From positions 1-64,000 of the forward strand of contig NZ_JBANRJ010000001.1 in NCBI RefSeq assembly GCF_037154075.1: a stretch of 64,000 nt of DNA. Reading direction: 5' to 3'. Position 1 is the stretch's first letter; each line of letters begins with the position of its first letter. Positions 43,280 to 62,545 of the stretch are shown piece after piece. Below the pieces are notes generated by a model. The model made no database searches. It had not been told where the DNA came from and was given only the letters and a program-made list of their open reading frames with translations. Origin of the DNA: Sphingobium aromaticiconvertens. Its GTDB lineage: Bacteria; Pseudomonadota; Alphaproteobacteria; Sphingomonadales; Sphingomonadaceae. Both the position numbers and the translations under genes were made by a program.

Positions 43280-43340
43280 GTTCAGTTCCTGAAATCAGAT
43301 ATGCAGTGGTGCTACGGCCAAAAAGCTAGATCGGGCGCGC

Positions 43341-43634
43341 TCAGGCCGGATCGACCAGCAGCCGCATGGAAACGGTCGCCGCGCCTTCGCGCAGCTTGAG
43401 CGCCACCTGATATTCGGGCGACGCGATATAGGCGCGGGCGGATTGGGCATCGGGGAAGCGGGTCACGACGATCCGCTCGCCGGGCACCGGCGCACCTTCC
43501 AGCATTTCCGCGACCAGCCCTTTGACGACCGACGTTCCCCCAAAGCGTTCGCTCAAGCCAACGATGCCCTTGCCATAGGCGGCAAACGCCTCAGCATCAT
43601 TGATGCTGACTGTCGCCACTATATATGCTGCCAT
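43341..43634 (-). CDS. DUF1330 protein
   Basis: 97 residues of the ferredoxin-like, dimeric alpha/beta barrel DUF1330 family: YIVATVSINDAEAFAAYGKG, GGTSVVKGLVAEMLEG, ERIVVTRFPDAQSARAYIASPEY. Such small proteins often accompany catabolic oxygenases and may act on or shield unstable intermediates. AGGAGG lies right before the ATG. First gene of the minus-strand unit with the flavin monooxygenase. Confidence 0.85.
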   Translation of the reverse strand: MAAYIVATVSINDAEAFAAYGKGIVGLSERFGGTSVVKGLVAEMLEGAPVPGERIVVTRFPDAQSARAYIASPEYQVALKLREGAATVSMRLLVDPA

Positions 43635-43704
43635 CCCTGCCTCCTGTTAACGGCCCGGAATCACTGTGGCACCAACCGGCGGATCGGGCGTCAGGGTCTG
43701 ATCA

Positions 43705-43727
43705 TTTTATTCGCCAGTCGATAAAAC
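43705..43727 (+). promoter_or_regulatory. Candidate operator of the right-hand catabolic operon
   Basis: TTTTAT (43705-43710) and ATAAAA (43721-43726) form a perfect inverted repeat around TCGCCAGTCG. The core CGCCAGTCGATAAAAC recurs in related form upstream of two other transcripts of the locus (50272-50287; 56419-56434 minus). Confidence 0.4.
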
Positions 43728-43807
43728 CCGCTTTGTCGGATGACGGCACACCACTCGCGACCGCACAAGCAGGGCCACATTCCCGAACATCCTTGCAAGG
43801 ACAGAAC

Positions 43808-44566
43808 ATGGTCGATTCCCTTGGTTATCGCATGAAGTTCGCGGTCATCGCGCCGTCGACGAACACCAGCGTGCAGCCGGAATATGAGGATATGCGCCCC
43901 CGCGGCGTCACCAACCATTTCTCCCGCATCGCCATTCCCGATACGAAGGTGACGGACGACGACAGCTTCATGGTAATGCTGCAATCGATCCGGGACGCGA
44001 CCTTCGACGCGGTCGATGTGTCGATGTCGATGGAACCGGGCTGCGTCATCATGGGTATGTCGGCTGAAACCTTTTGGGACGGGGCGGAGGGCGCGGATCG
44101 TCTGCACAAGAAAATGCTGGAGCGTACCGGCGGCGTACCCGTCATCATGGGATCGACCGCCGTCGATGCCGCGATCAAAGCCTATGAGAGCAAGGGCAAG
44201 CCGATCAGGAAGATCGGCATCATCACGCCTTATATGCCCGTGGGCGATAACAACGTGAAGAAGTTCTTCGAGGATCAGGGCTATGAGGTCGTAAACTTGG
44301 TCGGCCTGCAATCCCCCTCCCCCATGATGATCGCGCATGAATCGAAGCAGACGCTCAAACACGCCGCTATCGAAGCGAGCGAAGGAGTGGACGCCATCAT
44401 CCAGGCCGGCACCAACCTGGCTTTTGCGGAAGTCGCTGCAATGGCGGAATTCTGGCTGGAAAAGCCGGTCATCGCCATCAATACCGCCACCTATTGGCAC
44501 GCCCTGCGGAGCATGGGCATCAACGACCAGATGGACGGCTTTGGCCGCCTAGTGGCCGAATTTTAA
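43808..44566 (+). CDS. Asp/Glu racemase superfamily protein (maleate isomerase / arylmalonate decarboxylase-like)
   Basis: 252 residues. The fold signature is clear: FAVIAPSTNTSVQPEYEDM, KIGIITPYMPVGDNNVKKFFEDQGYEV, KPVIAINTATYWHALRSMGI. Relatives are maleate cis-trans isomerase (NicE, two catalytic Cys) and arylmalonate decarboxylase (one Cys). Here the first Cys position falls in VIMGMSAETFW and the second in IIQAGTNLAF; neither is Cys as I align them. It may therefore use other chemistry. First gene of a tightly packed five-gene operon with amidase-type enzymes. Confidence 0.8.
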   Translation: MVDSLGYRMKFAVIAPSTNTSVQPEYEDMRPRGVTNHFSRIAIPDTKVTDDDSFMVMLQSIRDATFDAVDVSMSMEPGCVIMGMSAETFWDGAEGADRLHKKMLERTGGVPVIMGSTAVDAAIKAYESKGKPIRKIGIITPYMPVGDNNVKKFFEDQGYEVVNLVGLQSPSPMMIAHESKQTLKHAAIEASEGVDAIIQAGTNLAFAEVAAMAEFWLEKPVIAINTATYWHALRSMGINDQMDGFGRLVAEF

Positions 44567-44607
44567 GCTATAGCGCCACCAGAATAGAGAGCCGAAGGAA
44601 TCGCATC

Positions 44608-45522
44608 ATGGATTATGACTATATCCCGCTTCCCCAACGCCAGCCGCTCAAATGGCCTAATGGCGCCCAGGTCGCGCTGATCCTGACGTTCAACCTGGAA
44701 ACCTGGGACCTGACCAAGGATACCGACAAGCCCTATTATGCCGGTGGCCCGTCGATTCTACCCGACATCCTGCCGGGCAATACGCCCGATTTTCCCAACT
44801 ATAGCTGGCGCGAATATGGTCAGCGGGTGGGCCTATGGCGTCTGATCGACCTGTTCGACGAACTGGGCGTGAAGGCCAGTTGCACCACCAACGCCGTCAC
44901 CTTCGACCGGCGCAAGGCGATGACCGACGCGGTGCTGGAGCGCGGCTGGGAATTACTGACGCATAATTGGGAGCAGGGCGAGTTGCTCACCAATTTCGCC
45001 GGCGATCCGGCCAAGGAGCGCGAGATCGTGCTGCGTACCCTCGACCAGTTCGAGAAGTTCACCGGTCGCAAGTCGAAGGGCTGGCTCTCCTCCTCGTTGC
45101 GTGGCACGCTACAGACAGCCGACATCCTCGCCGAATATGGCTGCACCTTCTACTGCGACATCATGAACGACGATCAGCCTTACCTGTTGCGTACGCCGCA
45201 TGGGCCGATCGTGTCGGTGCCCTATTCCAACGAGATCAACGACTTCACCTTCATCACCCGCAAGAATTACACGACCGACGAATATCGTGACGTGCTGATC
45301 GAGGAGCTGGACGTGCTCTATGCAGAAGGCGCGAAGACCGGACGGATCATGAATCTGGGCCTTCATCCCCATGTGTCGGGCCGCGCCCATCGCATCCGGG
45401 CGCTGCGCGAGTTCATGGAACATGCCAAGTCGCTACCCGGCGTGTGGTGGGCGACGCGCGAGGAGATTGCCGAATGGTATCTCCAGAACCATGAAAGCCA
45501 TATTCCCGGCCAGTTGGGATGA
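44608..45522 (+). CDS. NodB-fold hydrolase, PuuE/cyclic-imidase type
   Basis: 304 residues of the polysaccharide-deacetylase fold: ALILTFNLETWDLTKD at the metal-ligand strand, GVKASCTTNAVTF, WELLTHNWEQGELL, KGWLSSSLRGTLQTADILAEYG, FYCDIMNDDQPYLL and LGLHPHVSGRAHRI. The DxxxNDD.P and LHPHxxGR features place it with PuuE allantoinase and cyclic imide hydrolases rather than sugar deacetylases. The likely reaction is opening of a cyclic amide or imide. GAAGGAA precedes the ATG at 44608. Its stop overlaps the next start. Confidence 0.82.
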   Translation: MDYDYIPLPQRQPLKWPNGAQVALILTFNLETWDLTKDTDKPYYAGGPSILPDILPGNTPDFPNYSWREYGQRVGLWRLIDLFDELGVKASCTTNAVTFDRRKAMTDAVLERGWELLTHNWEQGELLTNFAGDPAKEREIVLRTLDQFEKFTGRKSKGWLSSSLRGTLQTADILAEYGCTFYCDIMNDDQPYLLRTPHGPIVSVPYSNEINDFTFITRKNYTTDEYRDVLIEELDVLYAEGAKTGRIMNLGLHPHVSGRAHRIRALREFMEHAKSLPGVWWATREEIAEWYLQNHESHIPGQLG

Positions 45523-46403
45523 GTGAGCCTGCACATGTCGCCGCCCTCAAGGATCTGCTCCGCGCAGATCCCGACGGACGGCGGCTGCATAGCGTGCCGG
45601 GATGTTGGGACGGGCTGACCGCCCTGCTGATCGAGCGAGCGGACTTTCCCATCGCGTTCCTCTCCGGCGGCGCGCTGTCCATGGGCCGCTATGGCCGCCC
45701 GGACATGGGCTTGGTCACGGCCAGCGAAGTGACCGAGGCGGTGGCGGTGATCCGCGACCGTGTCGCCATCCCGCTGATCGTCGACGGCGACACCGGCTTC
45801 GGAAATGCCCTGACGCTACAGCGCAGCCTGCGCGCCTTCGAACGGGCGGGCGCCAGCGCGGTGCAAATCGAGGATCAGGGATTCCCCAAGCGCTGTGGCC
45901 ATATGGCGGGCAAGACGGTGGTGCCGGTCGCCGAAGCGGTCGGCCGGATCAGGGCGGCGCTGGACGCGCGCCACGACATGCTGGTCATCGCCCGGACCGA
46001 CGCGGTGTCCGTGGAGGGTTTCGACGCCGCGATAGACCGGGCAGAGGCTTATCTGGAAGCGGGCGCGGACCTGCTCTTCATCGAGGGGCCACGGACCATG
46101 GACGAACTGGAGCAAATTGCGGCCCACTTCGCTGGCCGCGTGCCGCTGGTGCATAATCTGGTAGAAGGCGGGGTCACGCCGATCGGTAATGGCGCGGCGC
46201 TCGAAGCGTTGGGCTTCGCCATCGCGCTGCATCCATTGCTACTGATGCACGGACTGGTCGCGCAAGCACCCGGCTGGCTCGATACGCTGGCACGCGAACG
46301 CGGCACCGTCAGCCTGTCGGCCGACATCGTCCAGCTTTCCGACATGAACGCCCTGCTGGGCGCATCCGACCTTATTGCCCTTGGGAAACGCTATGACGCC
46401 TGA
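45519..46403 (+). CDS. Isocitrate lyase/PEP mutase-family C-C lyase
   Basis: 294 residues of the PEP mutase/isocitrate lyase superfamily: FLSGGALSMGRYGRPDMGLVT, DGDTGFGNALTLQRSLRAFERAGA, QIEDQGFPKRCGHMAGK (with the catalytic Cys-Gly-His motif), VIARTDA. Members cleave 2-methylisocitrate, dimethylmalate or oxaloacetate-type acids. It sits between the cyclic amidase and an isochorismatase-type hydrolase, consistent with a late step on a branched C4-C6 diacid. Coupled on both sides (ATGA; 11-nt overlap). Confidence 0.86.
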   Translation: MSEPAHVAALKDLLRADPDGRRLHSVPGCWDGLTALLIERADFPIAFLSGGALSMGRYGRPDMGLVTASEVTEAVAVIRDRVAIPLIVDGDTGFGNALTLQRSLRAFERAGASAVQIEDQGFPKRCGHMAGKTVVPVAEAVGRIRAALDARHDMLVIARTDAVSVEGFDAAIDRAEAYLEAGADLLFIEGPRTMDELEQIAAHFAGRVPLVHNLVEGGVTPIGNGAALEALGFAIALHPLLLMHGLVAQAPGWLDTLARERGTVSLSADIVQLSDMNALLGASDLIALGKRYDA

Positions 46404-50120: not shown

Positions 50121-50271
50121 GAGACAAATCCTTTGGTTGGATCAGGGCGTCACCCACGCTCATCATCAGCAAGACGCCGATGTAGGAGGCGTGGGCGCTA
50201 TCCGATTGCGTGCCATCGCCCCGATTGTTGCCGGTCGGCAACCGTTCCGAAATGGCAACTGTCGCCATCCT

Positions 50272-50287
50272 CACCAGACGATAAAAT
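50272..50287 (+). promoter_or_regulatory. Second copy of the locus motif
   Basis: CACCAGACGATAAAAT, 12 of 16 bases matching CGCCAGTCGATAAAAC at 43712-43727 within the core, 70 bp before the methyltransferase start (the other site is 80 bp before its gene). Probably a shared activator or repressor site. Confidence 0.35.
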
Positions 50288-50357
50288 CTTGCGCGCTCCA
50301 TGACGCGCGACAGTGTTGCGCCTATCACCGACCTTGCAAGCGACCGGAGATAGAACG

Positions 50358-51410
50358 ATGGACGAAGTAGTGCTGGGGCAGCGCGGTCGCGCGGCGATTG
50401 ATTTCCATTGTGCGGTGCGTGGCGCCGTCGCGAAGCTGCAAAGGGCGGTCGAGGCAGAGTTGAGCGACGCGGGCATCACCGCCCAGACGATGCCCGAGAA
50501 GATGGACGACCGGCACAGGCTTGTGGATGCAACGCTGGCGGAGTCGGCCACTTATGGCGCCCGCGCGCTATTGGGCGAGTGGACAGCCAAAGACCATGGA
50601 CCGATTTGCCAGGATGCATTCGCCGAAATCCGCGAGGCTGTGGAGCCGATGCTCAAGGCATTGGAGGATGGTCCGGCGAGCCTAGAACTGGACGAAGCAC
50701 TGAAATTGCCCGCTTATTTCGAGCAGGTGTGGTTCCACCGCACCACCGGCGGCTGGGATGCCAGCCCGCATAATGGCTTCGTTCATGGCGAACTAATCCA
50801 CAAGCGCATCCTGACCCGGGTGTTCGGCGGCAATATCTTCGGACATCGCCGCACCGCTGCCCAGCGCGCGCCGCGGCGCGACTATCGCCATATCCTGGAT
50901 ATGGGCGCGTCGTCGGGCCATAATATGGTTGCGCTGACCGAGGCCTTCCCGGATGCCGAGGTTAGCGGCGTCGATTTCTCCGCACGAATGCTGGAGCAGG
51001 CGCGGCGGGTCGCAAACGCGCGGGGCTGGGCATGGAAACTCTATCAGCGGCCGTGCGAGGATACCGGCTTTGCCGACGAGAGTTTCGATCTGGTCAGCAG
51101 TTATAACCTGATCCACGAAATTCCGCCGCGCATCATACGCGCGGTCTTTGCCGAGGCATTCCGACTGCTGGAGCCAAGCGGAACCATCATCATGTCCGAC
51201 GTACCGCGCTATGCCGAGATCGACCGGATGGCGTCTTGGCGGTTCGACTGGATGGCGCGCTGGGGCGGCGAACCCTATTGGCGCGCAGCGTCGAGTACCG
51301 ACTTGGTGCAGGTGGCGACAGACGCCGGGTTCACCGATGTCGACGGAAGCGTACTACCCGGCGGCCAGCCCTATATACTGGTCGCGCGCAAACCGGAGGC
51401 AGCGTGGTGA
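50358..51410 (+). CDS. SAM-dependent methyltransferase, module A
   Basis: 350 residues. About 185 N-terminal residues (ending HNGFVHGELIHKRILTRVFGG) precede a class I Rossmann domain: ILDMGASSGHNMVALTEAF, VSGVDFSARMLEQARRVA, FDLVSSYNLIHEIPPR and EPSGTIIMSDVP. The large N-terminal domain is shared in outline with the second methyltransferase at 60242 (P-x-Y-x-E...H...GG). The stop codon overlaps the start of a small partner gene (GTGA). A methyltransferase in a breakdown locus could activate, detoxify or trap an intermediate; the substrate is unknown. Confidence 0.85.
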   Translation: MDEVVLGQRGRAAIDFHCAVRGAVAKLQRAVEAELSDAGITAQTMPEKMDDRHRLVDATLAESATYGARALLGEWTAKDHGPICQDAFAEIREAVEPMLKALEDGPASLELDEALKLPAYFEQVWFHRTTGGWDASPHNGFVHGELIHKRILTRVFGGNIFGHRRTAAQRAPRRDYRHILDMGASSGHNMVALTEAFPDAEVSGVDFSARMLEQARRVANARGWAWKLYQRPCEDTGFADESFDLVSSYNLIHEIPPRIIRAVFAEAFRLLEPSGTIIMSDVPRYAEIDRMASWRFDWMARWGGEPYWRAASSTDLVQVATDAGFTDVDGSVLPGGQPYILVARKPEAAW

Positions 51411-51688
51411 CGGCTAAACGCGCGTCCGACCCCGAACCGCGCCAGATGCTGCGTGACCGCCAGATCGACCATCTGGGCGAGGCGATGCTGACGCTGACGC
51501 GCGAGTTGTGGGTGCTGACGGATCGGGTACGGATATTGGAAGCCGTGCTTGAGGACCAGGGACTGGACGTGGGGGGGGCGATTGCGACCTATGTGCCGTC
51601 GGCGGAGATGGAAACGGAACTGGCGATCGCGCGCGCGAGACTGGTTGACGGCGTGGTCAAGGCGTTGACGGGGCCGGTCGAGGGATAG
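51407..51688 (+). CDS. Small partner protein of methyltransferase module A
   Basis: 93 residues starting at a GTG that overlaps the methyltransferase stop. Predicted helical: LGEAMLTLTRELWVLTDRVR, ILEAVLEDQGLDVGGAIATY, then an Arg/Glu-rich C-terminal helix. It shares the pattern ML-x-LT-x-EL...DR...E-x(3)-LE...G with the 104-residue protein coupled to the second methyltransferase (59931-60245). I know no named family. A subunit or allosteric partner of the methyltransferase is the simplest reading. A G8 run at 51571-51578 lies in the coding frame. Confidence 0.7.
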   Translation: MTAKRASDPEPRQMLRDRQIDHLGEAMLTLTRELWVLTDRVRILEAVLEDQGLDVGGAIATYVPSAEMETELAIARARLVDGVVKALTGPVEG

Positions 51689-51707
51689 GACAAGGAGAGG
51701 TGCCCCC

Positions 51708-52511
51708 TCACCGCTGCAAAAAATCCTCAATCAATTCGGAGATCTTCTTCGTTTCCAGATCGAACATGCCGTGCGAGAGACCCGGCATCTCTATATAGCG
51801 CGCCCCTCTTACGCGCGGCGCGTTCGCCCGCGTCAGATCCCACAAGTCATCCTGCGGATTGAGGATCAGCGTGTCGTGGGCCAGTACATCAAGCGCGGAT
51901 TGCAGATCGTGGCGGTAGACCGCGTCATAGCCCCAGGGCGCTCTGGACCCACAGCGCAGATTTTCGGTCAGCGATTCGTGCAGCCAACTGGTATCGACCC
52001 GCGCGTCCGACAGCGACCGCATGAGCGCCCACATGCGTTGCAGGTGCGATCCATCCTCAACCGGCATGGGCCAATGCGCCAGTGCAGCACGTTTTTCGGT
52101 GCGAACGGCAGGCTCATAGGCTGCGACCGAAACCAAAATGAGGCGGCGCACCTGCCGGGGCCTCAGATTGGCCATCGCCACGGCAATCGACGAGCCGGTA
52201 TGATAGCCCAATATATCGACCATATTGTCGGCGATCAGGCCATTGGCGGCGATCCGATCGACCACGCCGAACATCGCGTCGGCATGGTCCTCGATCGATG
52301 GTGGCGCGGGCGGCGGATCGCTGGCGCCATAGCCCGGTGTATCGGGCGCAAACGCTGTCCGTCCCGGTGCCAGATCCTTCATCAGCCGCTCATAGATCCA
52401 GCCTGACTTGGGCGTGGGATGCAGCATCAATAGGGGCGGTGCAGTGGGTTTTCCCGCCAGCCGCACATGGACCTGGCCCCAGCGACCGTCGATATAGGTT
52501 TTGGCAATCAT
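51708..52511 (-). CDS. Alpha/beta hydrolase with GYHTG elbow
   Basis: 267 residues: LLMLHPTPKSGWIYERLMKD, FAPDTPGYGASDPPPAPPSI, ILGYHTGSSIAVAMANLRP (elbow with His in the Ser place), and C-terminal PGLSHGMFD with the catalytic-type His. It resembles the hydrolase at 47031 (same HP-T/S-P opening and HTG elbow). It is the third gene of the minus-strand unit TonB receptor - M24 - hydrolase, 10 bp after M24 copy B. Confidence 0.82.
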   Translation of the reverse strand: MIAKTYIDGRWGQVHVRLAGKPTAPPLLMLHPTPKSGWIYERLMKDLAPGRTAFAPDTPGYGASDPPPAPPSIEDHADAMFGVVDRIAANGLIADNMVDILGYHTGSSIAVAMANLRPRQVRRLILVSVAAYEPAVRTEKRAALAHWPMPVEDGSHLQRMWALMRSLSDARVDTSWLHESLTENLRCGSRAPWGYDAVYRHDLQSALDVLAHDTLILNPQDDLWDLTRANAPRVRGARYIEMPGLSHGMFDLETKKISELIEDFLQR

Positions 52512-52521
52512 CGTAGGTAGT

Positions 52522-53790
52522 TCAGCCGGAAGCGCCCGGACGTATGCGAAGCGAGGTGTCGCAATTGGTCAGTGGCTCCACACCATTGGCGGTGACCAAT
52601 ATCTGGTCCTCGACATGCAGATTGCCCCAGCCGATCTCATAATAGGGCATGTCGAGCGAGAAGATCATATTCTCCTCGAACACAAAGGGGCCGTTGCCAC
52701 CGGGAAGGGTCGGCCCGATCGGAATCTTGTGGTCCGAATGTTCAAGGCCAATCGAGTGGGGCGTGGCGAAGAAGAAGCCGGGAAAACCGGCCGCCTGCAC
52801 CGCATCGATGACCGCGCTGGTCGCTTCCTGTCCGGTGACGCCGGGCTTGACCACTTCGAGTACGGTTTTGCAGCCGACTTCCAGCGCCTTCATGCGCCGG
52901 ACCAGTTCTGGCTTGGGTTCACCGCACACCGCTACGCGGCCGAGGTCGCCCAGATAATTCTTATACTCGCACAACCCATCAAAGGTAATGCTCTCCCCCT
53001 CCAACACGGTGCCCATGGCATGATGGGTGCCGTTCTGGCCGGTGTTGAGGTAGATCGCCTTGCCGCCGCGCTTGGCGACTTCGACATTGTAGAGGGTGTC
53101 GAGGTCGTCGCGCGGCATCCCGACCTCGATCGAATCCAGTACGACTTCGAGTGCCTCCTGGTTCATCGACGCGACCTTGCGCATCAAGGCGATCTCGGCA
53201 GGCGACTTGACCATGCGGATGTCACGGAAGGTTGTGGTGGCGTCCGTCACCTGCACGTCTGGCAGACCGATCTCCTGCAACCATGGGCCAACGCGCGGAT
53301 CGTCGGATCCCAGCTTGCCAGCGGGCAGCCCCGCCTCCACAATCGCCTTCTTGAGCGCGTAAATGGCATTGACCGAAGCATTGCCCCGATGGCTCTCTTG
53401 AAACAGCAGATATTGCTCATCGCGCGGCGAGAGCGTGTCGTGGTTGATCGGCCATTTCATGCCATATTCGACATGCTCGGGATCTTCGACGTCGGGATCG
53501 AAATCGCGACGGTCGAGATAGATGGGGTGCACATAGCTCTGGATACTGGGCATCCAGGTTAATTCGGGCTTGTGGAAGAAGCGCACATGCTCGACGCCGG
53601 TGACGATCAGCGCGGGCGGCGCGGTTTCGTCGCGCGGCAGGAACGCATAATTGTAGAAGGTACGGCGCATCCGCATCAGCGCGCCCCAGTAGTCGGACAG
53701 GTAATAAACATTGATCGGCGCGGTGGCGATCAGCCCGTCCAGCCCTTCCCGATCCATGATTTCATGGGCGCGGGTCTTGTTCAGCAGCAT
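52522..53790 (-). CDS. M24 creatinase/aminopeptidase P-like protein, copy B
   Basis: 422 residues, paralogue of the protein at 47836: same start (LLNKTRAHEIMDREGLDGLI), YYLSDYWGALM, FDGLCEYKNYLGDLGRVAVC (Asp ligands), TPHSIGLEHSDHKIPIG (His), FSLDMPYYEIGW (Asp instead of Glu) and LHVEDQILVT (Glu). Start at 53790; an earlier ATG at 53856 would nearly touch the receptor gene. The twin M24 proteins might form a heterodimer or act on successive intermediates. Confidence 0.85.
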   Translation of the reverse strand: MLLNKTRAHEIMDREGLDGLIATAPINVYYLSDYWGALMRMRRTFYNYAFLPRDETAPPALIVTGVEHVRFFHKPELTWMPSIQSYVHPIYLDRRDFDPDVEDPEHVEYGMKWPINHDTLSPRDEQYLLFQESHRGNASVNAIYALKKAIVEAGLPAGKLGSDDPRVGPWLQEIGLPDVQVTDATTTFRDIRMVKSPAEIALMRKVASMNQEALEVVLDSIEVGMPRDDLDTLYNVEVAKRGGKAIYLNTGQNGTHHAMGTVLEGESITFDGLCEYKNYLGDLGRVAVCGEPKPELVRRMKALEVGCKTVLEVVKPGVTGQEATSAVIDAVQAAGFPGFFFATPHSIGLEHSDHKIPIGPTLPGGNGPFVFEENMIFSLDMPYYEIGWGNLHVEDQILVTANGVEPLTNCDTSLRIRPGASG

Positions 53791-53865
53791 GACGGACTCC
53801 CGATGATCGAAGGAAAAAAGAAACCCCGGCGATCCTGGTCTGGATCGCCGGGGCATCGGGAAGGA

Positions 53866-56259
53866 TCAGAAGCGGACCGCGCCCCTGACGCCGATCGTGG
53901 CGCGTTCGGGTGCCGCTAGGACGATGGTGTTAAGGCCTTGAGCCACGCTGCCGTTTGGATTGGTGTTTCGCAGGACGTTCGACGGCGTCTTGTCGTCGAA
54001 GATATTGCGGCCGAAAAGTTCCAGCGTATATTTCCCCGTACTGGCGCCGATGCGGATGTTCACACGGCTGGCCGAGTTGATCCATGCCACATTGGCGGCC
54101 GTGGCATATTGTTTGCCGGTATAGATGTAATCGATACGGACAATGCCGGTCCAGTCGTCGTTGATTCTGGGCTGGTAGTTGATCGCCGCCGTACCGCTAT
54201 ATTCGGGGTAGCGTTCCATGGTGTTGCCAACCGGATTGATGATGCCGTCGATAGCGACGCATTCCGAACAGGCGACGTTGCGGATGTCGGTGGCCGCCCA
54301 GTTGAACGTCCCCTCCAGTGTCAGGTCATTGGTCGCCTGAAACGCCCCTTCCAGTTCCACGCCCCAGAGATTGGTCGATCCGTCGGGGAAGGTCAGCGTC
54401 GCCGTAGAGGTGGTGGTGCCCGTCAGATAGGCGATATTCTGGTTAATCTGGCGGTTACGCCATTCGCCATAATAGACCGCGCTCAGCACCCGCAGGCGAC
54501 GACCGAAAAATTCGCCCTTCAGGCCTGCTTCGTACATCGTCAGCTTTTCTTCGTCGACCGCAGTCGGGATTTCGCGCCCGGCGTTGGTGGTCAACTGGGC
54601 CTGGATGGCGGGGGAGAACAAAGCATAGTTGGTGTTGAAGGTGCCAGGACGCGTGCCGCGCGACCAGGATGCGTAGGTCGATACTGTCGGCGTGATCTCA
54701 TAGTTGAGGATGACACGCGGGGTGAAAGACTTGAACGTCTTCGCCAGATTGGCGGACTCGGCGCCCGTCACGGCTGAATAGCCGATATGGTTGACCCGAT
54801 CCCACTGGTAACGGGCCTCGCCACTCAACTTCAGGCCATCCAGCAGTTCATAGCTGGCCGAACCGAACACTCCGAAGGTGCGGGCGCGATAGTCGGTCGG
54901 CGCCCCCAGATTGGTCGGCGTGGCGCCCCGCGACGCGCGGGTGAAAAAGTCGATGCTTTCCCAATAATAATTGCCGCCGACCATATAGGTGAACTTGCCG
55001 TTGTCGGGCGAGGCCAGCCGCAACTCAGCCGAATTATTTTCGATATCATAAGGCAGATAAACGGTTGAATAATAGCCGGTGCCATCGGGCGGACGATTAT
55101 AGGTATCTGTCAGCGCAGCCCACCGGTTGCGGTTGTGCGAGAAGGCGGCGGACAGGGTGTGATCGCCCACTTCCTGGTCGATCATCAGCCGTGTCTGATA
55201 GGCTTTTCGTTCAATGCCCAGATGATCGATGAAGTCGGCCGGGACCGTCGCCCCGACTGCCGGATTGGTGACGCCGCCAAAGTTCAGGCTGCCCCCCCGA
55301 TCAATATTCTGCGCCATCTTGGACGGCACGATATTGCCGACATTGCCACAGATATAGTTAAACCCGGTGGTGCTCCCTGCGGGCACGCGACCGTTGCCGC
55401 CCGCATTGCAGTTATAATCCGCTTCGGTCAGCAGCGCCTGCGCCGAAGGACCGTCGCTATCTTCCCAATAGGTGGCATAACCGCGCACGGTCGTCGTTTC
55501 GGTCGGCTTGGCGATGAAGCTGAAATCGATCGACTGGGTGTCGCGCTCGCCCAGGCGACCGCTATACCCAACATTCTCATACTGCCCGTCGGTGTGATAA
55601 TAGCGACCAGCTAGGCGCACGGCGAGCTTGTCCTGGACAATCGGCCCCTCGACGCTCGCCTTGGCGTCGATGCTGTTATAAGAAGAATAGGAGATATCGA
55701 CGCTGCCCTTGACCTCTTCGAGCGAGGGTGCACGGGTGATGAAGTTAATCGCGCCGGCAAAGGTCGAGCGACCGAAATAGGCGCTCTGCGGTCCCTTCAC
55801 GACTTCGACCCGCTCGATATCGCCCATGCCCGATGTCGCGCCACCGGGGACCGCAACGCCATCGACGAAGATGGTGACGGCCTGACGATTGGGCGAGTCA
55901 CCGGGATACATACCGCGCATCGAGATCGTCTGGAAACCGCGATCGTTCCGGTTTGCCGAACTGTTCTGATAGCGCAGGCCGGGCACGAAATCATTGAGTT
56001 CGTTGAGGCCGGTGACGCCGCGCTGGTTCAGCGCGTCCCCACTCAGCGCCGTGATGGAGACGGGCACGTCGATCAGGTTCTCACCCCGCTTGCGAGCGGT
56101 GACGACAATTTCGGCCATGCCGCCGGTCGATGCGCTATCTCCGGCGCTGTCCTGGGCCAAAGCCGGGATGCTGGAGAGGGCCAGCGCGGTGCCCGCAGTG
56201 GTGACGCACAACAGTGCCTTGCGCGATAGTGACGACGGAACCTTTGGGGTCGTAAACAT
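53866..56259 (-). CDS. TonB-dependent receptor of the catabolic locus
   Basis: 797 residues. Signal peptide (TTAGTALALSSIPALAQ), TonB-box region (EIVVTARKRGENLIDVPVSI), plug with VPGLRYQNSSANRNDRGFQT, RQAVTIFVDGVAVPGG and VEVVKGPQSAYFGRSTFAGAINFITR, and a barrel ending TIGVRGAVRF. This is the sphingomonad catabolic type (CirA/FecA-like plug with VPVSITALSG), normally importing plant or xenobiotic compounds rather than iron. GGGAG precedes the ATG. It heads the minus-strand unit with M24 copy B and an alpha/beta hydrolase. Confidence 0.92.
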   Translation of the reverse strand: MFTTPKVPSSLSRKALLCVTTAGTALALSSIPALAQDSAGDSASTGGMAEIVVTARKRGENLIDVPVSITALSGDALNQRGVTGLNELNDFVPGLRYQNSSANRNDRGFQTISMRGMYPGDSPNRQAVTIFVDGVAVPGGATSGMGDIERVEVVKGPQSAYFGRSTFAGAINFITRAPSLEEVKGSVDISYSSYNSIDAKASVEGPIVQDKLAVRLAGRYYHTDGQYENVGYSGRLGERDTQSIDFSFIAKPTETTTVRGYATYWEDSDGPSAQALLTEADYNCNAGGNGRVPAGSTTGFNYICGNVGNIVPSKMAQNIDRGGSLNFGGVTNPAVGATVPADFIDHLGIERKAYQTRLMIDQEVGDHTLSAAFSHNRNRWAALTDTYNRPPDGTGYYSTVYLPYDIENNSAELRLASPDNGKFTYMVGGNYYWESIDFFTRASRGATPTNLGAPTDYRARTFGVFGSASYELLDGLKLSGEARYQWDRVNHIGYSAVTGAESANLAKTFKSFTPRVILNYEITPTVSTYASWSRGTRPGTFNTNYALFSPAIQAQLTTNAGREIPTAVDEEKLTMYEAGLKGEFFGRRLRVLSAVYYGEWRNRQINQNIAYLTGTTTSTATLTFPDGSTNLWGVELEGAFQATNDLTLEGTFNWAATDIRNVACSECVAIDGIINPVGNTMERYPEYSGTAAINYQPRINDDWTGIVRIDYIYTGKQYATAANVAWINSASRVNIRIGASTGKYTLELFGRNIFDDKTPSNVLRNTNPNGSVAQGLNTIVLAAPERATIGVRGAVRF

Positions 56260-56418
56260 GTTTCTCTGCTCCCTGCGCTGAAAAGACTTTTAAAGTCTCC
56301 TGCGAACCCCCGGGCACATCTTCTGCGGCTCCGGATTGTTGATGCGATCATCCGCAGCGAGGGGCCTTTCCGTCCAGTACCGCCATTCGATTATCCACCT
56401 GCCGGAGAGTTATAGCTC

Positions 56419-56434
56419 GTTTGTCCGACAGGCG
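56419..56434 (-). promoter_or_regulatory. Third copy of the locus motif
   Basis: Minus strand CGCCTGTCGGACAAAC, 12 of 16 identical to the site at 43712-43727. It lies in the 267-bp divergent region between the TonB receptor and the flavin monooxygenases and could serve both. Confidence 0.35.
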
Positions 56435-56526
56435 GTCAAGAGCAAGCGGGTGCTGGCCTGATGTCCGCGCCATGCCGATCAAACACTACCGGCACGGACG
56501 TCGGACAAGATGGAGCGGGCATTCCC

Positions 56527-57909
56527 ATGCGAGCCGAGATCGACAGGATAAGCCTTTTCGCCATGCCTATGGGCAGTGGCGCGCACTGCGCTGGATGGCG
56601 TCACCCGCTGGCCGGCGAGAGCCGCCTGCACTCTATAGGCCATTATCGCGCCATCGCCCAGATCGCCGAGCGTGGAAAATTCGATGCGATGTTCCTTGCC
56701 GATGCACAAGGCTTTCGGCCGATCGCCGGGCGCGACGCCTATGCCTGCGTCGATGCGATCAGGATGGACCCGGTGACGGTGCTGAGCGCGGTCGCGATGG
56801 CGACGTCACGGCTGGGCCTGATCGCCACCCTCTCCACCAGTTATAACGAACCTTATTCAGCGGCCCGCCGGCTGGCCACGCTCGATCATATCAGCGAAGG
56901 GCGAGCGGGCTGGAATGTCGTCACATCAACCACCGAGAACGAAGCACATAATTTCGGACGCGAGGGCCATTATGGCCATAGCGAACGCTATGCCCGCGCG
57001 GCCGAGTTCGTCGATGTCGCCAAGGCCTTGTGGGACAGTTGGGACGACGACGCCATTTTGGCAGATCGGACCGACGGACGCTATTTTGATCCAGACAAGG
57101 TGCATGCCATCGCGCATCAGGGAACGCATTTCAGTGTCGCCGGCCCGCTGACCATGGGGCGCCCTCCGCAAGGTCATCCAGTGATCGTACAGGCTGGCGC
57201 ATCCGACGCGGGCCTGGATCTGGCGGCGCAGACGGCCGAGGCGGTCTTTACCTCTCATCCGGCGCTGGAAAGCGCGCAGGCCTTCTATACCGACCTCAAG
57301 GACCGGGTCGCCGCCGCCGGACGGTCGCGCGACAGCCTGAAGATATTGACCGCGATCCAACCGGTCATCGCCGACACGGCCGATGAAGCCGAAGCGATCA
57401 CCCGGGAACTTGAAGCACTGATCCCGGCGGACCTTGCGATCGCATTGTTGCAAATGCAGTTTGGCGGCATAGACCTGTCCGGCTTCGATCCCGATGGCCC
57501 TTTACCCCCTGTCCCCGCCAACAATGCCTCACAGGGTTCGCAGAAGCGGATCATCGAACATGCCGCACGCGAGAATCTTTCGATCCTGCAGATCGCGCGA
57601 CATATCGCGGCCGGGCGAACCAGCAAGACAGCAACCGGCACAGCCGAGCAGGTCGCCGACATGCTGACCCAGTGGTTCGCCGGGTCCGCTGCCGATGGTT
57701 TTGTCATCGCCGCGCCGGTCCTGCCCGACATGCTGGCCCGCTTCGTCGACGGGGTCGTGCCGATCCTGCAGGCGCGCGGCCTGTTCCGCACCGACTATGA
57801 AGGCACGACCCTGCGCGAACATCTCGGGCTGGCGCGCCCTGCCAGCCGCCATGCCGGACGGCCCGAGTTGCATGTGGAACCCGAAATCTGGCGGGAGGCC
57901 GGCCGATGA
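56527..57909 (+). CDS. NtaA/SnaA/DszA-family FMN monooxygenase
   Basis: About 460 residues, luciferase-like flavin monooxygenase of the NtaA/DszA branch: GWRHPLAGESRLHSIGHYRA, AERGKFDAMFLADAQGF, TLSTSYNEPYSAARRLATLD, GRAGWNVVTSTTENEAHNFG, and GHPVIVQAGASDAGLDLAAQ. These use FMNH2 and O2 to cleave C-N or C-S bonds (nitrilotriacetate, dibenzothiophene sulfone). The ATG at 56527 has GGAGCGGG upstream; an ATG at 56461 is possible. Coupled to the next flavin enzyme (ATGA). A flavin reductase is not present in the locus. Confidence 0.88.
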   Translation: MRAEIDRISLFAMPMGSGAHCAGWRHPLAGESRLHSIGHYRAIAQIAERGKFDAMFLADAQGFRPIAGRDAYACVDAIRMDPVTVLSAVAMATSRLGLIATLSTSYNEPYSAARRLATLDHISEGRAGWNVVTSTTENEAHNFGREGHYGHSERYARAAEFVDVAKALWDSWDDDAILADRTDGRYFDPDKVHAIAHQGTHFSVAGPLTMGRPPQGHPVIVQAGASDAGLDLAAQTAEAVFTSHPALESAQAFYTDLKDRVAAAGRSRDSLKILTAIQPVIADTADEAEAITRELEALIPADLAIALLQMQFGGIDLSGFDPDGPLPPVPANNASQGSQKRIIEHAARENLSILQIARHIAAGRTSKTATGTAEQVADMLTQWFAGSAADGFVIAAPVLPDMLARFVDGVVPILQARGLFRTDYEGTTLREHLGLARPASRHAGRPELHVEPEIWREAGR

Positions 57910-58940
57910 AGGTTTTCGGGCTGCTCCCCTATGTGGACGAAAGCGAAATCAAGCGCGCCACCGGCACGTTCGACCCGGCCTTCATCAAGACGCTGGCGCA
58001 ATGCTATGACGCACTGGGCTATGAACGGGTGCTGATAGCTCAAAGCGCCAGTTCTCCCGACAGCATGACGGTCGCGGCGTCGGTCATGGCATGGACCAAT
58101 CAGTTGAAACTGATGATCGCCCACCGACCCGGCTTCATCGCACCGACCATGGCCGCACGGATGCTGGCGACCATCGACCAGATGAGCGGCGGCCGGTGCG
58201 GCGTGCATATCATCACCGCGACCAACGATGCGGAGACGCGCGGTGACGGCGACTTCCTGACCAAGGACCAGCGCTATGCCCGCAGCCGTGAATATGTGGA
58301 GCTGCTGCGCCGGACTTGGGCTTCAACCGAACCGTTCGACCATGACGGCGACGCATATCGCGTCGAGGGCGCGAAGACGATGATCCGGCCCTACGACGAG
58401 TCGATTCCGATCTTCTGGGGTGGGTCTTCGGGTCTGGGCATCGCCTATGGCGGCGAATGTGCCGACGTCTACGCCTTTGCCGGAACGACGCTGGAACGCA
58501 GCGCCGCGCTGATCACGCAGGTGCGCGCCGCCGCCGAACCCTTCGGCCGCAAGCCCCGCTTCCTGATGTCGATCCGGGTCGTGATCGCACCAGACGACGC
58601 AGCGGCGTGGCCGCGGGCCGACGCTATCGTCGCCGACATCCGGTCGCAGGGCGGCACGTCGAAGAAAGGCCTGGGCAGCGGCTCTGATGGAAGCGCCGCG
58701 CGCCGCATCGCCGAAGCGATGGCAGCACGCTCGACCGCCGACCCCTGCCTGTGGGGCGGGGTAATCGAGGCGACCGGCGGCACATCGCACGCGATGGCAC
58801 TCGTCGGCGGCCCCGATCAACTAGTCGAAACCTTGCGCGCCTATGAGGCGATCGGCGTGGACGATGTACTCCTACGCGGGTTCGACAATCTGGCGGATGC
58901 CGAGGCGGTCGGGCGGTTGCTCATTCCCAGGTTAGGCTGA
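57906..58940 (+). CDS. SsuD-like LLM-class FMN monooxygenase
   Basis: 344 residues, alkanesulfonate-monooxygenase-type LLM flavoenzyme: YDALGYERVLIAQSASSPDS, LKLMIAHRPGFIAPTMAARM, GGRCGVHIITATNDAETRGD, RYARSREYVELLRRTW, and IPIFWGGSSGLGIAYGGECA. In such enzymes FMNH2-derived peroxide attacks a C-S, C-N or carbonyl group. It is translated with the NtaA-like enzyme. The pair may act in sequence on one substrate. Converges on the LysR gene with a 9-bp overlap. Confidence 0.88.
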   Translation: MKVFGLLPYVDESEIKRATGTFDPAFIKTLAQCYDALGYERVLIAQSASSPDSMTVAASVMAWTNQLKLMIAHRPGFIAPTMAARMLATIDQMSGGRCGVHIITATNDAETRGDGDFLTKDQRYARSREYVELLRRTWASTEPFDHDGDAYRVEGAKTMIRPYDESIPIFWGGSSGLGIAYGGECADVYAFAGTTLERSAALITQVRAAAEPFGRKPRFLMSIRVVIAPDDAAAWPRADAIVADIRSQGGTSKKGLGSGSDGSAARRIAEAMAARSTADPCLWGGVIEATGGTSHAMALVGGPDQLVETLRAYEAIGVDDVLLRGFDNLADAEAVGRLLIPRLG

Positions 58941-59846
58941 ATCGAGTACCGCGCCGCGCAAAGCCTCCGTCACGATCCGCAGCAACGGCGTCGGCACGGC
59001 GACCGCACGGCGCAGCATTAGGCCAGCCAGATAGTCGAACCGCATGTCGGGCAGATCCAGCGGCGCGAGACGCCCCGCCGCGACATCCGGCTGCGCTTCG
59101 GAACGGGGCAGCATGGCGACGAGATCGCCCTGCATCGCTACCTGGCGAACCAGCGGCAGGTGCGCACTATTGAACGCCTGTTGCGGCGCGGTCAGCCCCA
59201 GTCGGAAAAACAGACTGGCGAAGCGATAGGATAAAGACAGTTCGAACGGGATCGCCCATCGCTGGTCGGCGACCTCCTGCACTGTGACCCTGCGCCCCAG
59301 GAGCGGATGGCCCGGCCGGACATAGGGTTCCAGAATGATGGTCGCGAGCGGCTCGAAACTCAGTTCCGCCGTCTCCCGCTGGCCCGCGCGCAGGAAGTCC
59401 GGGATCAGGCATAAGGCAGCGTCCAGTTCTCGCGCCATAAGGCCAGCGGCCAGTATCTCACGTGTGCCGGTGCTGACCTGTACATTGAGTTGCGGCGCGC
59501 GGGCGGCAAGCAGGGCCACTGCGCGCGGTATCGCATGATCCAGGAAATTGGGCGATACGCCGATCCGCACCTGCCCTTCGGCCGCCAGATGGCTGGAATC
59601 GAGTTCGGCGATCGCCCGACTGGCTTCGTTGAGAATCGAGAGAGCATGCGGCAACAGCTTGTCTCCCGCCACGCTGACCAACGCGCCGCGCGGTCCCCGC
59701 TCGAACAAGCGGGTTCCCAGTTCCGCCTCTAGCAGGGCAATGCCACGCGTGAGCGCGGGCTGGCTTATGCCCAGCCGCCGGGCCGCCCGACCAAAACCAC
59801 CCTCCTGCGCGACGGCGACGAACTGTTCGAGCCTCTTGGTATCCAT
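58932..59846 (-). CDS. LysR-family regulator of the catabolic locus
   Basis: 304 residues. Helix-turn-helix at about 1-60 (RLEQFVAVAQEGGFGRAARR, LGISQPALTRGIALLEAELG), effector domain from about 90. It is divergent from methyltransferase module B by 84 bp and is the only regulator gene in the locus, so it is the best candidate for pathway control. The intergenic TGCAT-N6-ATGCA repeat is a plausible binding site. Confidence 0.88.
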   Translation of the reverse strand: MDTKRLEQFVAVAQEGGFGRAARRLGISQPALTRGIALLEAELGTRLFERGPRGALVSVAGDKLLPHALSILNEASRAIAELDSSHLAAEGQVRIGVSPNFLDHAIPRAVALLAARAPQLNVQVSTGTREILAAGLMARELDAALCLIPDFLRAGQRETAELSFEPLATIILEPYVRPGHPLLGRRVTVQEVADQRWAIPFELSLSYRFASLFFRLGLTAPQQAFNSAHLPLVRQVAMQGDLVAMLPRSEAQPDVAAGRLAPLDLPDMRFDYLAGLMLRRAVAVPTPLLRIVTEALRGAVLDSA

Positions 59847-59867
59847 TGTCTCTACTCATAACCAATA

Positions 59868-59883
59868 TGCATGACTTTATGCA
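59868..59883. promoter_or_regulatory. Candidate LysR-box
   Basis: Inverted repeat TGCAT (59868-59872) - N6 - ATGCA (59879-59883) in the divergent region between lysR and module B. Confidence 0.4.
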
Positions 59884-59930
59884 CGACTTGCGGATTGTCT
59901 CAAGGCGCAAGTACATGGCAGTCGGGAAGC

Positions 59931-60245
59931 ATGACCCTATCCCCTCGCCCTTCGCTTCCCTCGCGTGCCAAGCGCCGAACCCTCGTGCCCGGCCAGTCAC
60001 CTTCCGAAGAAAGAATGCTGGCCATGATCACGGCGCTGGCCTCCGAACTGGCGGTGACTCGCGAACGGCTGGACAGCGTAGAGCGGCTGCTGGAAGCAGC
60101 AGGCGTGATGGAGCGAACTGCGGTCGAGGGCTTCGCCCCTGATGCAGCGCAGGCGGATGAGCGCGACGCCATCCGCCGCAGGGTGATCGCCCATGTCTTT
60201 GGACCGCTGCGCAGCGACATCGACCGCCAGGAGGATGCACGATGA
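59931..60245 (+). CDS. Small partner protein of methyltransferase module B
   Basis: 104 residues. Basic N-terminus (PSRAKRRTLVPG), then helices ERMLAMITALASELAVTRER and LDSVERLLEAAGVMERTAVE, then ADERDAIRRRVIAHVFGPL. The central pattern resembles the 93-residue partner of module A. Its stop overlaps the methyltransferase start (ATGA), the reverse gene order to module A. The ATG at 59931 is preceded by GGGAAG; an earlier in-frame ATG at 59871 would overlap the LysR-box. No named family recognised. Confidence 0.68.
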   Translation: MTLSPRPSLPSRAKRRTLVPGQSPSEERMLAMITALASELAVTRERLDSVERLLEAAGVMERTAVEGFAPDAAQADERDAIRRRVIAHVFGPLRSDIDRQEDAR

Positions 60246-61354
60246 TTCACCCCATGTTACCGGGCACGACCCATGACGAGACCGCCGCCCAATTGTTCGT
60301 CCGTGATTTCAAGCTGTTCCTGGCCGAGGGCGTGGAACCCGGCCACCGTGCGCGGGCCGAACAGCTCGATCCGGGCGTGAGAATCAATGCGCGCGTCGAA
60401 ACGGTCTATCAGAAGCTCCATGACGATGAAGGGTTCCGGGCCTGGGCGAGCCTGCGCCGCACGTCGCAGGAGATGCTGTGGGCGAGCGTCAGCGAGAGCG
60501 TGGCGCGGCAGGCGGACGCATTGGAAGCGCTGGCCGCCGCCGCCCCGGATATGGGATCGCTGACGCTCGATCCCGATTTTGTGCAGCCCGACTATCTGGA
60601 AGCCGGTGACGTCCATCTGATGCCGGGCGGCTATGCCCATGACGATGGGACTGTGTTGCAGGGCGCGGTGATGGATCGCGGGGGCGCGGTCTATATGCTG
60701 GGGCGCAATGGTGGCCTGATGAACGATGTACGCGGGCACACGGTCGCGGCGCATGTCTTTGCGCTATATCCTGACCTTGAACCTGGCCATATCCTGGAAC
60801 TGGGTTGCGGCGTTGGTGCAAGCCTGATCCCCGTCGCGGCCGCCTTTCCCGACGCAAAGGTCCATGGGATAGACGTTGGCGCGGCGATGCTGCGCTATGC
60901 ACTGGCCCGTGCGCGGCATCTGAGCACAAGCGTGCATCTGGTCCAGGGCAATGTCGAACAGGCCCCCTTCCCCGACGCTAGCTTCAACTTCGTATTCTCC
61001 AGCGTGCTGCTGCATGAAACATCGCCTACGGCGATCACCCGCATCATCGCCGAAAGTCACCGGCTGCTGAAGCCCGGCGGGGTCGTCGTCCATCTTGAAG
61101 TGCCCAATCGTTATGACGAGCTGGACCTGTGGGGCAAGATACGAGGCGAGATCGAAGCCGATTACAACAATGAGCCAAACTGGAAGGCCGCGATCAGTGC
61201 CGACTATCGCGCGTTGCTGGCGCAGGCGGGATTTGAGGATATCGCTGTCGGCTATCAGGCGGCGACATCGGCGCCGGCGCGGGGCGCGGGCGGTTTTTCG
61301 GAGAAATCGATGGGCACTTTCCGCTCCTGGTTCGTTGCGTCGGCGCGTAAATAG
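60242..61354 (+). CDS. SAM-dependent methyltransferase, module B
   Basis: 370 residues. A ~180-residue N-terminal domain (...QPDYLEAGDVHLMPGGYAHD) precedes the class I fold: HILELGCGVGASLIPVAAAF, VHGIDVGAAMLRYALARARH, FNFVFSSVLLHETSPTAITR, LKPGGVVVHLEVPN. Motifs are intact, so it should be an active SAM methyltransferase. Same organisation as module A, including a co-translated small protein. Followed by an MFS transporter after 9 bp. Confidence 0.85.
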   Translation: MIHPMLPGTTHDETAAQLFVRDFKLFLAEGVEPGHRARAEQLDPGVRINARVETVYQKLHDDEGFRAWASLRRTSQEMLWASVSESVARQADALEALAAAAPDMGSLTLDPDFVQPDYLEAGDVHLMPGGYAHDDGTVLQGAVMDRGGAVYMLGRNGGLMNDVRGHTVAAHVFALYPDLEPGHILELGCGVGASLIPVAAAFPDAKVHGIDVGAAMLRYALARARHLSTSVHLVQGNVEQAPFPDASFNFVFSSVLLHETSPTAITRIIAESHRLLKPGGVVVHLEVPNRYDELDLWGKIRGEIEADYNNEPNWKAAISADYRALLAQAGFEDIAVGYQAATSAPARGAGGFSEKSMGTFRSWFVASARK

Positions 61355-61363
61355 GGACGCGCT

Positions 61364-62545
61364 GTGCCAGGGTTGAGCGATAGCCGGACGCGAAACCGGG
61401 GGCGGAGGGTCGCGCCGCTTGTGGTCGGCGCCGCTACCTTCATGCAGGCATTCGACAGCAGCGCGATCATCGTCGCCTTGCCTGCCATGGCGCGCGATTT
61501 CGGTGCACCAATATTGTCTCTCAACCTGGTCGTGGTCGCCTATCTGGTTGCCGCCACTGCGGCCTTGCCGGCCTGCGGATGGGCGGCGGATCGTTTTGGC
61601 GCACGGCGCGTATTTCTGTTCGCAGTAGCGGGATTTGGATTGTCCTCGCTCGCCGCCATGCTCGCGCCCAGCTTTAGCTGGCTGATAGCAGCGCGAATCA
61701 TCCAGGGCTGCATGGGCGCGTTACTGCTGCCGGTTGGCCGGATCATCGTGCTGCGATCCGTGCCGCGTCGGGAATTCGTCAGCGCATTGGCGATGCTGAG
61801 TCTGCCGATCATGCTAGGGCCATTGCTGGGTCCGACGGTTGGCGGACTCGTTGTTACCGCCGGGTCATGGCGTTGGTTGTTTGCGATCAACATATTAGTG
61901 TCGATCGCCGGGCTGTTCGCTGTGCGCCACTATGTTGAGGACCTGCCGGGCGAAGATCCCCGGCCGCTCGATATGGTCGGGCTGCCCCTGATCGCCGCAG
62001 CGCTGATCGGAATCAGCTCTGGCATTACCGCGTTCACTCACCAAGGCACGTCGCCCGCTGTGGCCGCGCTGCTGCTGGCCGCGGGGCTTGCCTGCGCCGC
62101 GCTTTATGGCTGGCACGGGCGTCGGCATCCCCAGCCGGTGCTGGACCTTCGAATATTCCGCGTGCCATTGCTCGCCGCGACCAATGTGGGCGGGCTGTTC
62201 CAGCGGATGCTGGTCGGTGCTGCGCCCTTCCTTCTAACGATGCTGTTTCAGCCGGGGTTGGGACTGGATGCGGCAACTAGCGGCGGACTGATCTTCGCGA
62301 GCGCATTCGGCGCAATTCTGGGTCGGTGGCTGCTCCCGCCCCTGATCGCCCGTTTCGGGTTTCGCACCTTCCTGATCGGCAACAGTCTGGTGATGGCGCT
62401 GTCGATGGCGGTCTGCGCGTGGATCGACGCGGAGACGCCCTATGCGGTGATTATTATCATCCTGTTCCTGCAAGGGTTGATCCGCGCGGTGCAGTTGATG
62501 GGGCTGTCCGCCGTCAGCACCAATGGCACAGATTTGAGGTTGTAA
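61364..62545 (+). pseudogene. DHA2-type MFS transporter truncated by an IS3-family element
   Basis: 393 residues from a GTG start. Helix 1 APLVVGAATFMQAFDSSAII, VALPAMARDFGAPILSLNLV, motif A-like AADRFGARRVFLFAVAGFG, and motif C-like IMLGPLLGPTVGGLVV identify a 14-helix DHA2 drug/metabolite transporter. These usually run to 450-500 residues. Here the last native codons (NGTD...) run into the left end of the IS element, which supplies the stop codon TAA at 62543-62545. It probably exported or imported a pathway compound; it may no longer work. Confidence 0.75.

What the first reader, a model, noticed from the sequence alone, without database searches (positions are those of the whole stretch)
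50358..61354. Two methyltransferase + small-protein modules in one catabolic locus
At 50358-51688 and 59931-61354 a SAM methyltransferase with a large (~180-residue) extra N-terminal domain is translationally coupled (GTGA, ATGA) to a small helical protein. The small proteins share a pattern (ML-x-LT-x-EL...DR...E...LE...G) and the gene order is reversed between the copies, which argues against simple tandem duplication and for a selected partnership. I know of no described two-component methyltransferase of this kind in catabolism. It could be an obligate heteromeric enzyme that methylates a substrate or a leaving group.
Basis: partly seen in the sequence, partly recalled or inferred. Interest (0 to 1): 0.72.

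Follow-up and report, generated by a model that had tools for sequence, protein, structure and literature searches.

The report
Paired methyltransferase and small helical partner
The window carries two copies of an undescribed gene pair, a methyltransferase-like enzyme and a small helical protein, which stay side by side in very different bacteria and so probably work as one two-part enzyme.

Summary
MT1 (50358-51410) overlaps small1 (51407-51688) by GTGA; small2 (59931-60245) overlaps MT2 (60242-61354) by ATGA. BLASTP does not relate the smalls (E 0.17), but a profile built without either copy finds both (E 2.7e-23, 1.6e-16). Of 80 named loci found with methyltransferases alone, 69 carry a small gene within 600 nt, in Alpha- and Gammaproteobacteria, Cyanobacteria and a Myxococcota bin. 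Of 385 class genomes, 23 have both genes, 2 only the methyltransferase, 1 only the small, 359 neither. Their trees mirror each other, even among paralogues within genomes. Homologous pairs modelled as one chain reach pTM 0.89 and, in opposite order, 0.83. MT1 and MT2 are separate old branches, each with relatives beside similar catabolic genes elsewhere. No significant Pfam, NCBIfam or PDB relative of the small was found. Best reading: an undescribed two-component SAM-dependent methyltransferase family, a portable step of catabolic clusters. Complex, methyl transfer, substrate and obligate partnership are untested. Some genomes hold 42-65 methyltransferases but 7-8 smalls, so a small may be shared.

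The parts
50358..51410 (+). MT1: class I SAM methyltransferase with helical N-terminal extension, 350 aa
   Evidence: family alignment; nearest relative L119 (56% over 317 columns)
51407..51688 (+). small1: helical partner protein, 93 aa, GTG start overlapping the MT1 stop by 4 nt
   Evidence: no Pfam match at E <= 1, two non-significant NCBIfam matches
59931..60245 (+). small2: helical partner protein, 104 aa (frame open from 59871; start not certain)
   Evidence: one non-significant Pfam match, no NCBIfam match
60242..61354 (+). MT2: class I SAM methyltransferase with helical N-terminal extension, 370 aa, ATG overlapping the small2 stop by 4 nt
   Evidence: nearest relative among the 62 rows L136 in the same genus (54% over 362 columns); 60.5% to a Novosphingobium humi plasmid
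61364..62545 (+). MFS transporter starting 10 nt behind MT2, probably the same transcription unit; ends next to a transposase gene
58932..59846 (-). LysR regulator divergent from small2-MT2
42077..46403 (.). sub-cluster A: FAD monooxygenase (-), Asp/Glu-racemase-like protein (EutA / arylmalonate decarboxylase kind) (+), PuuE-like deacetylase (+), PrpB/isocitrate-lyase-like (+); same order and strands near the MT1 relative in L119
   Evidence: 53.7-77.7% identity
47031..49137 (.). alpha/beta hydrolase (47031-47846 +) and M24 peptidase/creatinase-like protein (47836-49137 -); both kinds lie beside the MT2 relative in L136
51708..52511 (-). alpha/beta hydrolase convergent with MT1-small1; its cluster occurs in 16 of 153 loci, window included
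52522..58940 (.). M24-like protein (52522-53856 -), TonB receptor (53866-56259 -), two luciferase-like flavin monooxygenases (56461-57909 +, 57906-58940 +); the first three have relatives beside the MT2 relative in L136

Best explanation
Each pair encodes a two-component SAM-dependent methyltransferase: the large subunit binds SAM and holds the invariant residues, and the about 100-residue helical protein docks on it, most likely against its helical N-terminal domain, taking a place like that of the N-terminal helices of DnrK/RdmB-type enzymes, and so completes or caps the substrate pocket and stabilises the enzyme. Catabolic gene clusters take up such pairs as a portable step; MT1-small1 goes with the FAD-monooxygenase/racemase/deacetylase/lyase cluster, small2-MT2 with the hydrolase/M24/flavin-monooxygenase/TonB cluster. 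The likeliest chemistry is methyl transfer to an oxygen (enol, phenol or carboxylate) of a pathway intermediate. Shown by computation: homology of the smalls, conserved linkage, co-occurrence, co-evolution, intact SAM-binding sequence. Predicted: docking. Inferred: subunit role, dock site, methyl transfer, kind of substrate.
For: Profile homology of the two smalls. Linkage: 69 of 80 methyltransferase-found named loci carry a small within 600 nt on the same strand; 20 of 22 matches, the window's own two included (the others are L013, none, and L018, contig end); 4 of 4 non-window matches. In reverse, 49 of 65 non-window smalls have a methyltransferase within 600 nt. Co-occurrence in 385 class genomes 23 both / 2 / 1 / 359 (Fisher p about 1e-33). 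Mirror trees of 140 pairs r = 0.857; reassigning smalls among paralogues inside genomes gave at most 0.766 in 2000 trials. Seven residues invariant in 76 of 76 independent methyltransferases, among them H125, H258, E259 of MT2 (H127, H253, E254 of MT1); E311 in 75 of 76. One-chain models of two homologous pairs: pTM 0.89 and 0.83; with a freely placed small the ceiling would be near 0.76-0.81 (my estimate from the length share). In the small-first model 8 of 50 structural alignments begin inside the small, 7 of them at residue 11-13 against chain residues 6-21 of DnrK-, RdmB- and BchU-type enzymes. MT1 and MT2 each have relatives with like neighbours elsewhere.
Against: No activity, complex or substrate is known. 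pTM comes from fused chains of homologues, not from the window pairs, and fusion favours contact; no coordinates or interface scores were available, so the two models could not be compared. 42 of 50 alignments of the small-first model do not reach the small, one that does begins at chain residue 114, and in the other order only the methyltransferase is covered. 7 of 80 loci lack a nearby small away from a contig end. Genomes with 42-65 methyltransferases have 7-8 smalls. 16 of 65 smalls have no methyltransferase within 600 nt, 5 of them within 300 nt of a contig end. G284 has a methyltransferase match and no small. Flanking genes differ from locus to locus, so the pathway role is open. Column covariation was dominated by shared ancestry and gave no usable contacts.
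Confidence: 0.62

Rival explanations
1. The pair is a SAM-binding enzyme that does not transfer a methyl group, like the hydroxylase RdmB or the decarboxylase TamK, which share the DnrK fold; the small protein is again a structural subunit.
Against: Plain methyltransferases (UbiG, Coq5, ToxA) reach nearly the same Z, 14.9-15.5, and structural resemblance shows no function. No homologue is known to do such chemistry.
Confidence: 0.15
2. The small protein is not an enzyme subunit but a dedicated chaperone, stabiliser or regulator that the methyltransferase needs only transiently.
For: Some methyltransferases lack a nearby small and some genomes have many more methyltransferases than smalls, which suits a protein that acts on several clients.
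Against: Pair-specific co-evolution inside genomes and pTM of the one-chain models favour a lasting cognate contact.
Confidence: 0.17
3. The small protein is the substrate: the large protein methylates its partner.
For: Linkage and co-evolution would look the same; E39, R46 and E51 of small2 are conserved in 72, 73 and 69 of 76 smalls.
Against: No residue of the small is fully invariant apart from the start; the families sit in metabolic, not regulatory, gene clusters; 65 enzymes to 8 smalls is odd for enzyme and substrate.
Confidence: 0.06

Closest known systems
Trm112 and the methyltransferases it activates (largely recalled; PMC5372719 seen in a search listing, title and start of abstract only; the methyltransferase Hvo_0019 from a solved Trm112 complex, 6f5z, is a structural match)
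   Different: The window smalls have no cysteine and no Trm112 Pfam match; clients of Trm112 act in translation, these lie mostly in catabolic clusters.
RNMT-RAM, mRNA cap methyltransferase with activating miniprotein (PMC3235549, PMC5137418: search listing and start of abstracts)
   Same: A small activating subunit on a methyltransferase.
   Different: Vertebrate cap methylation; RAM is called relatively unstructured there, whereas the small here is predicted helical.
DnrK / RdmB / TamK (O-methyltransferase family 2, anthracycline enzymes)
   Same: Among the best structural matches; MT2 passes the Pfam Methyltransf_2 cut-off (29.1 against 22.3 bits).
   Different: Those are single-gene enzymes (recalled); here helices seem to be supplied by a second gene, MT1 has no listed Methyltransf_2 match, and no N-terminal dimerisation Pfam domain was found.
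PsMT2-PsMT3 O-methyltransferase heterodimer of opium poppy (PMC4935968, passages read)
   Same: A metabolic O-methylation that needs two different polypeptides.
   Different: Both polypeptides are O-methyltransferases; here the partner is a small helical protein.
CpaM, corrinoid protein-associated methyltransferase (NCBIfam NF043040)
   Same: Best NCBIfam match of both enzymes.
   Different: 48.7 and 58.1 bits against a cut-off of 180; only the general methyltransferase core matches.

Membership tests
Class I SAM-dependent methyltransferase superfamily | Pfam methyltransferase domain above its gathering score | tested here: met
   Methyltransf_25: 72.1 and 80.5 bits against 27
Class I SAM-dependent methyltransferase superfamily | SAM-binding glycine motif and acidic residue after strand 2 | tested here: met
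   G192 in 76 of 76, G188 in 74 of 76, D211 in 71 of 76 with E in the other 5 (MT2 numbering); the motif names are recalled
Class I SAM-dependent methyltransferase superfamily | Transfers a methyl group from SAM | not testable with these tools
   no biochemical data
Two-gene family described here (MT + small) | Small protein scores above chance with a profile built without the window copies | tested here: met
Two-gene family described here (MT + small) | Small gene next to the methyltransferase in unrelated genomes | tested here: met
   69 of 80 loci
Two-gene family described here (MT + small) | The two proteins form a complex | tested here: inconclusive
   fused-chain models of two homologous pairs, pTM 0.89 and 0.83; no interface scores, no experiment
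Trm112 activators | Zinc-binding cysteines | tested here: not met
   no cysteine in either window small protein; the cysteine criterion is recalled
Trm112 activators | Trm112 Pfam match | tested here: not met
   none in the window smalls at E <= 1 nor in 17 family members at E <= 0.1
O-methyltransferase family 2 (DnrK/COMT type) | Pfam Methyltransf_2 above gathering score | tested here: inconclusive
   met by MT2 (29.1 against 22.3 bits), no match listed for MT1
O-methyltransferase family 2 (DnrK/COMT type) | N-terminal dimerisation domain by sequence | tested here: not met
   no such Pfam domain in MT1 or MT2 at E <= 1
CpaM (NF043040) | Score above the curated cut-off of 180 bits | tested here: not met
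   48.7 and 58.1 bits

The most novel reading that the evidence does not exclude
An undescribed class of two-component SAM enzyme in which a small hub subunit is plugged into, and in some lineages shared by, dozens of paralogous catalytic subunits (65 to 8, 42 to 8, 42 to 7, 16 to 5 in four genomes of one family), giving those bacteria a combinatorial methylation system for breaking down diverse organic compounds.
Probability: 0.35. Interest if true: 0.82.

Novelty: new variant of a known kind. Interest (0 to 1): 0.63.

Why it matters
If true, a protein family annotated only as 'class I SAM-dependent methyltransferase' plus 'hypothetical protein' (the wording on plasmid pJE1) is really a two-part enzyme found in several phyla. 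Anyone who tests the large protein alone may see no activity. It would add small-molecule catabolism to the methyltransferases that need a small activating partner, and it gives a handle on the methylation steps of unassigned catabolic clusters, including lineages with 42-65 paralogues per genome.

Tried and rejected
Chance pairing of short ORFs: rejected by profile scores against 950 shuffles, by linkage and by co-occurrence. Local duplication: rejected by the tree. Known domain for the small: Pfam over 17 members gave only stray matches, best E 0.012; a PDB profile search gave best E 0.014 (uteroglobin constructs) and 0.025 for a nitrile hydratase alpha subunit, the latter over 26 positions only, not pursued. 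The structural searches barely tested the small by itself (notes), so 'no known fold' is not claimed. Natural gene fusions: none among the ORFs. Covariation between the two proteins: Neff 72, dominated by ancestry, not used. Assigning the pathway: neighbours differ widely; within 6.5 kb of 76 independent pairs (chosen by having a small) the commonest other cluster, SDR, occurs 15 times; the window genes suggest an N-containing or carboxylated ring compound (nicotinate-like logic, recalled), but nothing fixes the substrate. Papers: searches found none; others (10 papers, all listed; 30 of 43 listed) showed, by listing, no bacterial catabolic methyltransferase with a small partner; two searches found one paper each: PMC10653915 on tomato Sphingobium (passages; the word methyltransferase does not occur in its main text) and PMC5031334 (listing only); one search found PMC11069340 (passages; unrelated). 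The library lacks most subscription journals. Viral structure search: the top 50 are general methyltransferases or weak matches.
Full report
What is there. MT1 lies divergent from a TauD-like gene and convergent with an alpha/beta hydrolase; small2-MT2 lies behind a divergent LysR gene and in front of an MFS gene. Both enzymes pass the Pfam cut-offs of general methyltransferase families; the smalls match nothing in Pfam or NCBIfam significantly.

Are the smalls related? Plain BLASTP says no (E 0.17). A profile made from the smalls of other genomes, without the window copies and the near relative L022, finds small2 at E 2.7e-23 and small1 at 1.6e-16, while the best of 950 shuffled sequences reaches 0.0035; the fragment L022 itself reaches only 0.0024. 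In leave-one-out tests the 19 smalls score between 2e-32 and 4.8e-5 with the rest, the weakest being L017 and the cut-off L022. So the shared pattern is homology.

Are they kept together? Searching 61 genomes with MT2 gave 22 matches in 9 genomes, the window's own two included; 20 of 22 have a small beside them, one (L013) has none and one (L018) ends at a contig edge. Searching 398 genomes of the phylum with the methyltransferase profile gave 4 matches outside the window in 3 genomes, all 4 with a small. The one scan of named genomes gave 80 loci: 69 of 80 have a small within 600 nt on the same strand, and 4 of the 11 misses lie within 500 nt of a contig end, one of them (L175) only on its upstream side. 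The 69 include sphingomonads, Kordiimonas, Pseudomonas and Stutzerimonas, Methylonatrum, Nostoc and other cyanobacteria, and a Myxococcota bin. In the pooled set, which includes loci found by the small itself and so is biased, 144 of 174 distinct methyltransferases have a small, 9 stand near another methyltransferase, 6 are near contig ends and 15 have none. From the side of the small, 49 of 65 non-window matches have a methyltransferase within 600 nt; of the 16 others 5 lie within 300 nt of a contig end. A start that overlaps the upstream stop by 4 or 1 nt is possible in 51 of 138 pairs outside the window, so tight overlap is common but not the rule.

Do the genes occur in the same genomes? 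In the same 385 class genomes the methyltransferase (E <= 1e-40) is in 25 and the small (E <= 1e-6) in 24; 23 have both, 2 only the methyltransferase, 1 only the small (77% complete), 359 neither (Fisher p about 1e-33). In these scans only the best 4 or 12 candidates per genome were scored. A more lenient search found weak small candidates (E about 1e-4), 3-4 kb from the methyltransferases, in one of the two exceptions, G120, and none in G284.

Do they evolve together? For 140 pairs the distances among methyltransferases and among smalls correlate at r = 0.857; for 89 paralogue comparisons inside genomes r = 0.854. Shuffling smalls among paralogues of the same genome 2000 times gave a mean of 0.688 and never more than 0.766. 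Gene order changed 6 times on a tree of 62 methyltransferases, at least 4 times on supported branches; MT1 and MT2 lie far apart, each with its own relatives. So the window pairs came from two old lineages.

Two clusters, two pairs. The nearest relative of MT1 (L119, another family of the class) has near it a FAD monooxygenase, an Asp/Glu-racemase-like protein, a PuuE-like deacetylase and a PrpB-like lyase, in the order and on the strands of window 42077-46403, 53.7-77.7% identical. The nearest tree relative of MT2 (L136, same genus) has an alpha/beta hydrolase (54%), an M24 protein (about 30%), a flavin monooxygenase (40%) and a TonB receptor (30%) like those of window 47031-57909. Elsewhere the neighbours vary: dehydrogenases, VAO-type FAD oxidases, hydantoinase-like HyuA/HyuB, MmgE/PrpD, luciferase-like enzymes. 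No other neighbour comes near the constancy of the partner gene.

Likely working. Seven residues are invariant in 76 independent methyltransferases, among them H125, H258 and E259 of MT2, and E311 in 75 of 76. H125 lies before the core, H258-E259 in the core and E311 behind it, so they could meet at the active site (inference). I propose a heteromeric SAM-dependent methyltransferase whose small subunit completes the pocket, used on oxygen nucleophiles in catabolism (0.62). Non-methylating SAM chemistry as in RdmB or TamK, a chaperone role, and the small as substrate are the rivals.

Against a simple one-to-one partnership: G396 has 65 methyltransferase matches (83 of 107 candidates scored) and 8 small matches, G220 42 and 8, G089 42 and 7, G318 16 and 5; 25 further methyltransferases from 20 stretches of G318 and G396 had no small near them and fall in several places of the tree. 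Smalls with a lysine-rich tail occur both beside a methyltransferase (L068) and without one (L069, L073, L074). Either these lineages share smalls in trans or many of their methyltransferases work alone.

Known or new? No paper on such a pair was seen in the searches (the last listed 30 of 43 papers), in a library without most subscription journals. It works, on this reading, like methyltransferases with a small activator (Trm112, RNMT-RAM). For Trm112 membership was tested and not met: no cysteines, no matching domain.

Noticed in passing
   Followed up: partly
L068, L069, L073, L074: Some smalls carry a lysine/alanine-rich N-terminal tail; three of these four have no methyltransferase beside them.
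   Followed up: no
window 40253-41371 and 62590-63953: Transposase genes bracket the whole catabolic island; the MFS gene 61364-62545 stops 45 nt before one of them and looks cut short.
   Followed up: partly
window 29246-31076: A TonB receptor lies in two overlapping frames, plug domain in 29246-29995 and barrel in 29820-31076, so it looks frameshifted.
   Followed up: no
L176, L208 and other cyanobacterial loci: In cyanobacteria trpB lies just in front of the methyltransferase (trpB cluster in 23 of 153 loci), a setting with no evident link to catabolism.
   Followed up: no
genus of the window: Only 5 of 37 genomes of the genus, own included, have an MT2 relative at E <= 1e-20, so the pair is accessory and probably mobile; of 9 plasmid records with relatives 6 are Novosphingobium.
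   Followed up: partly
L098, L095, L097, L221: Tandems of two or three methyltransferases close to one small gene.
   Followed up: no
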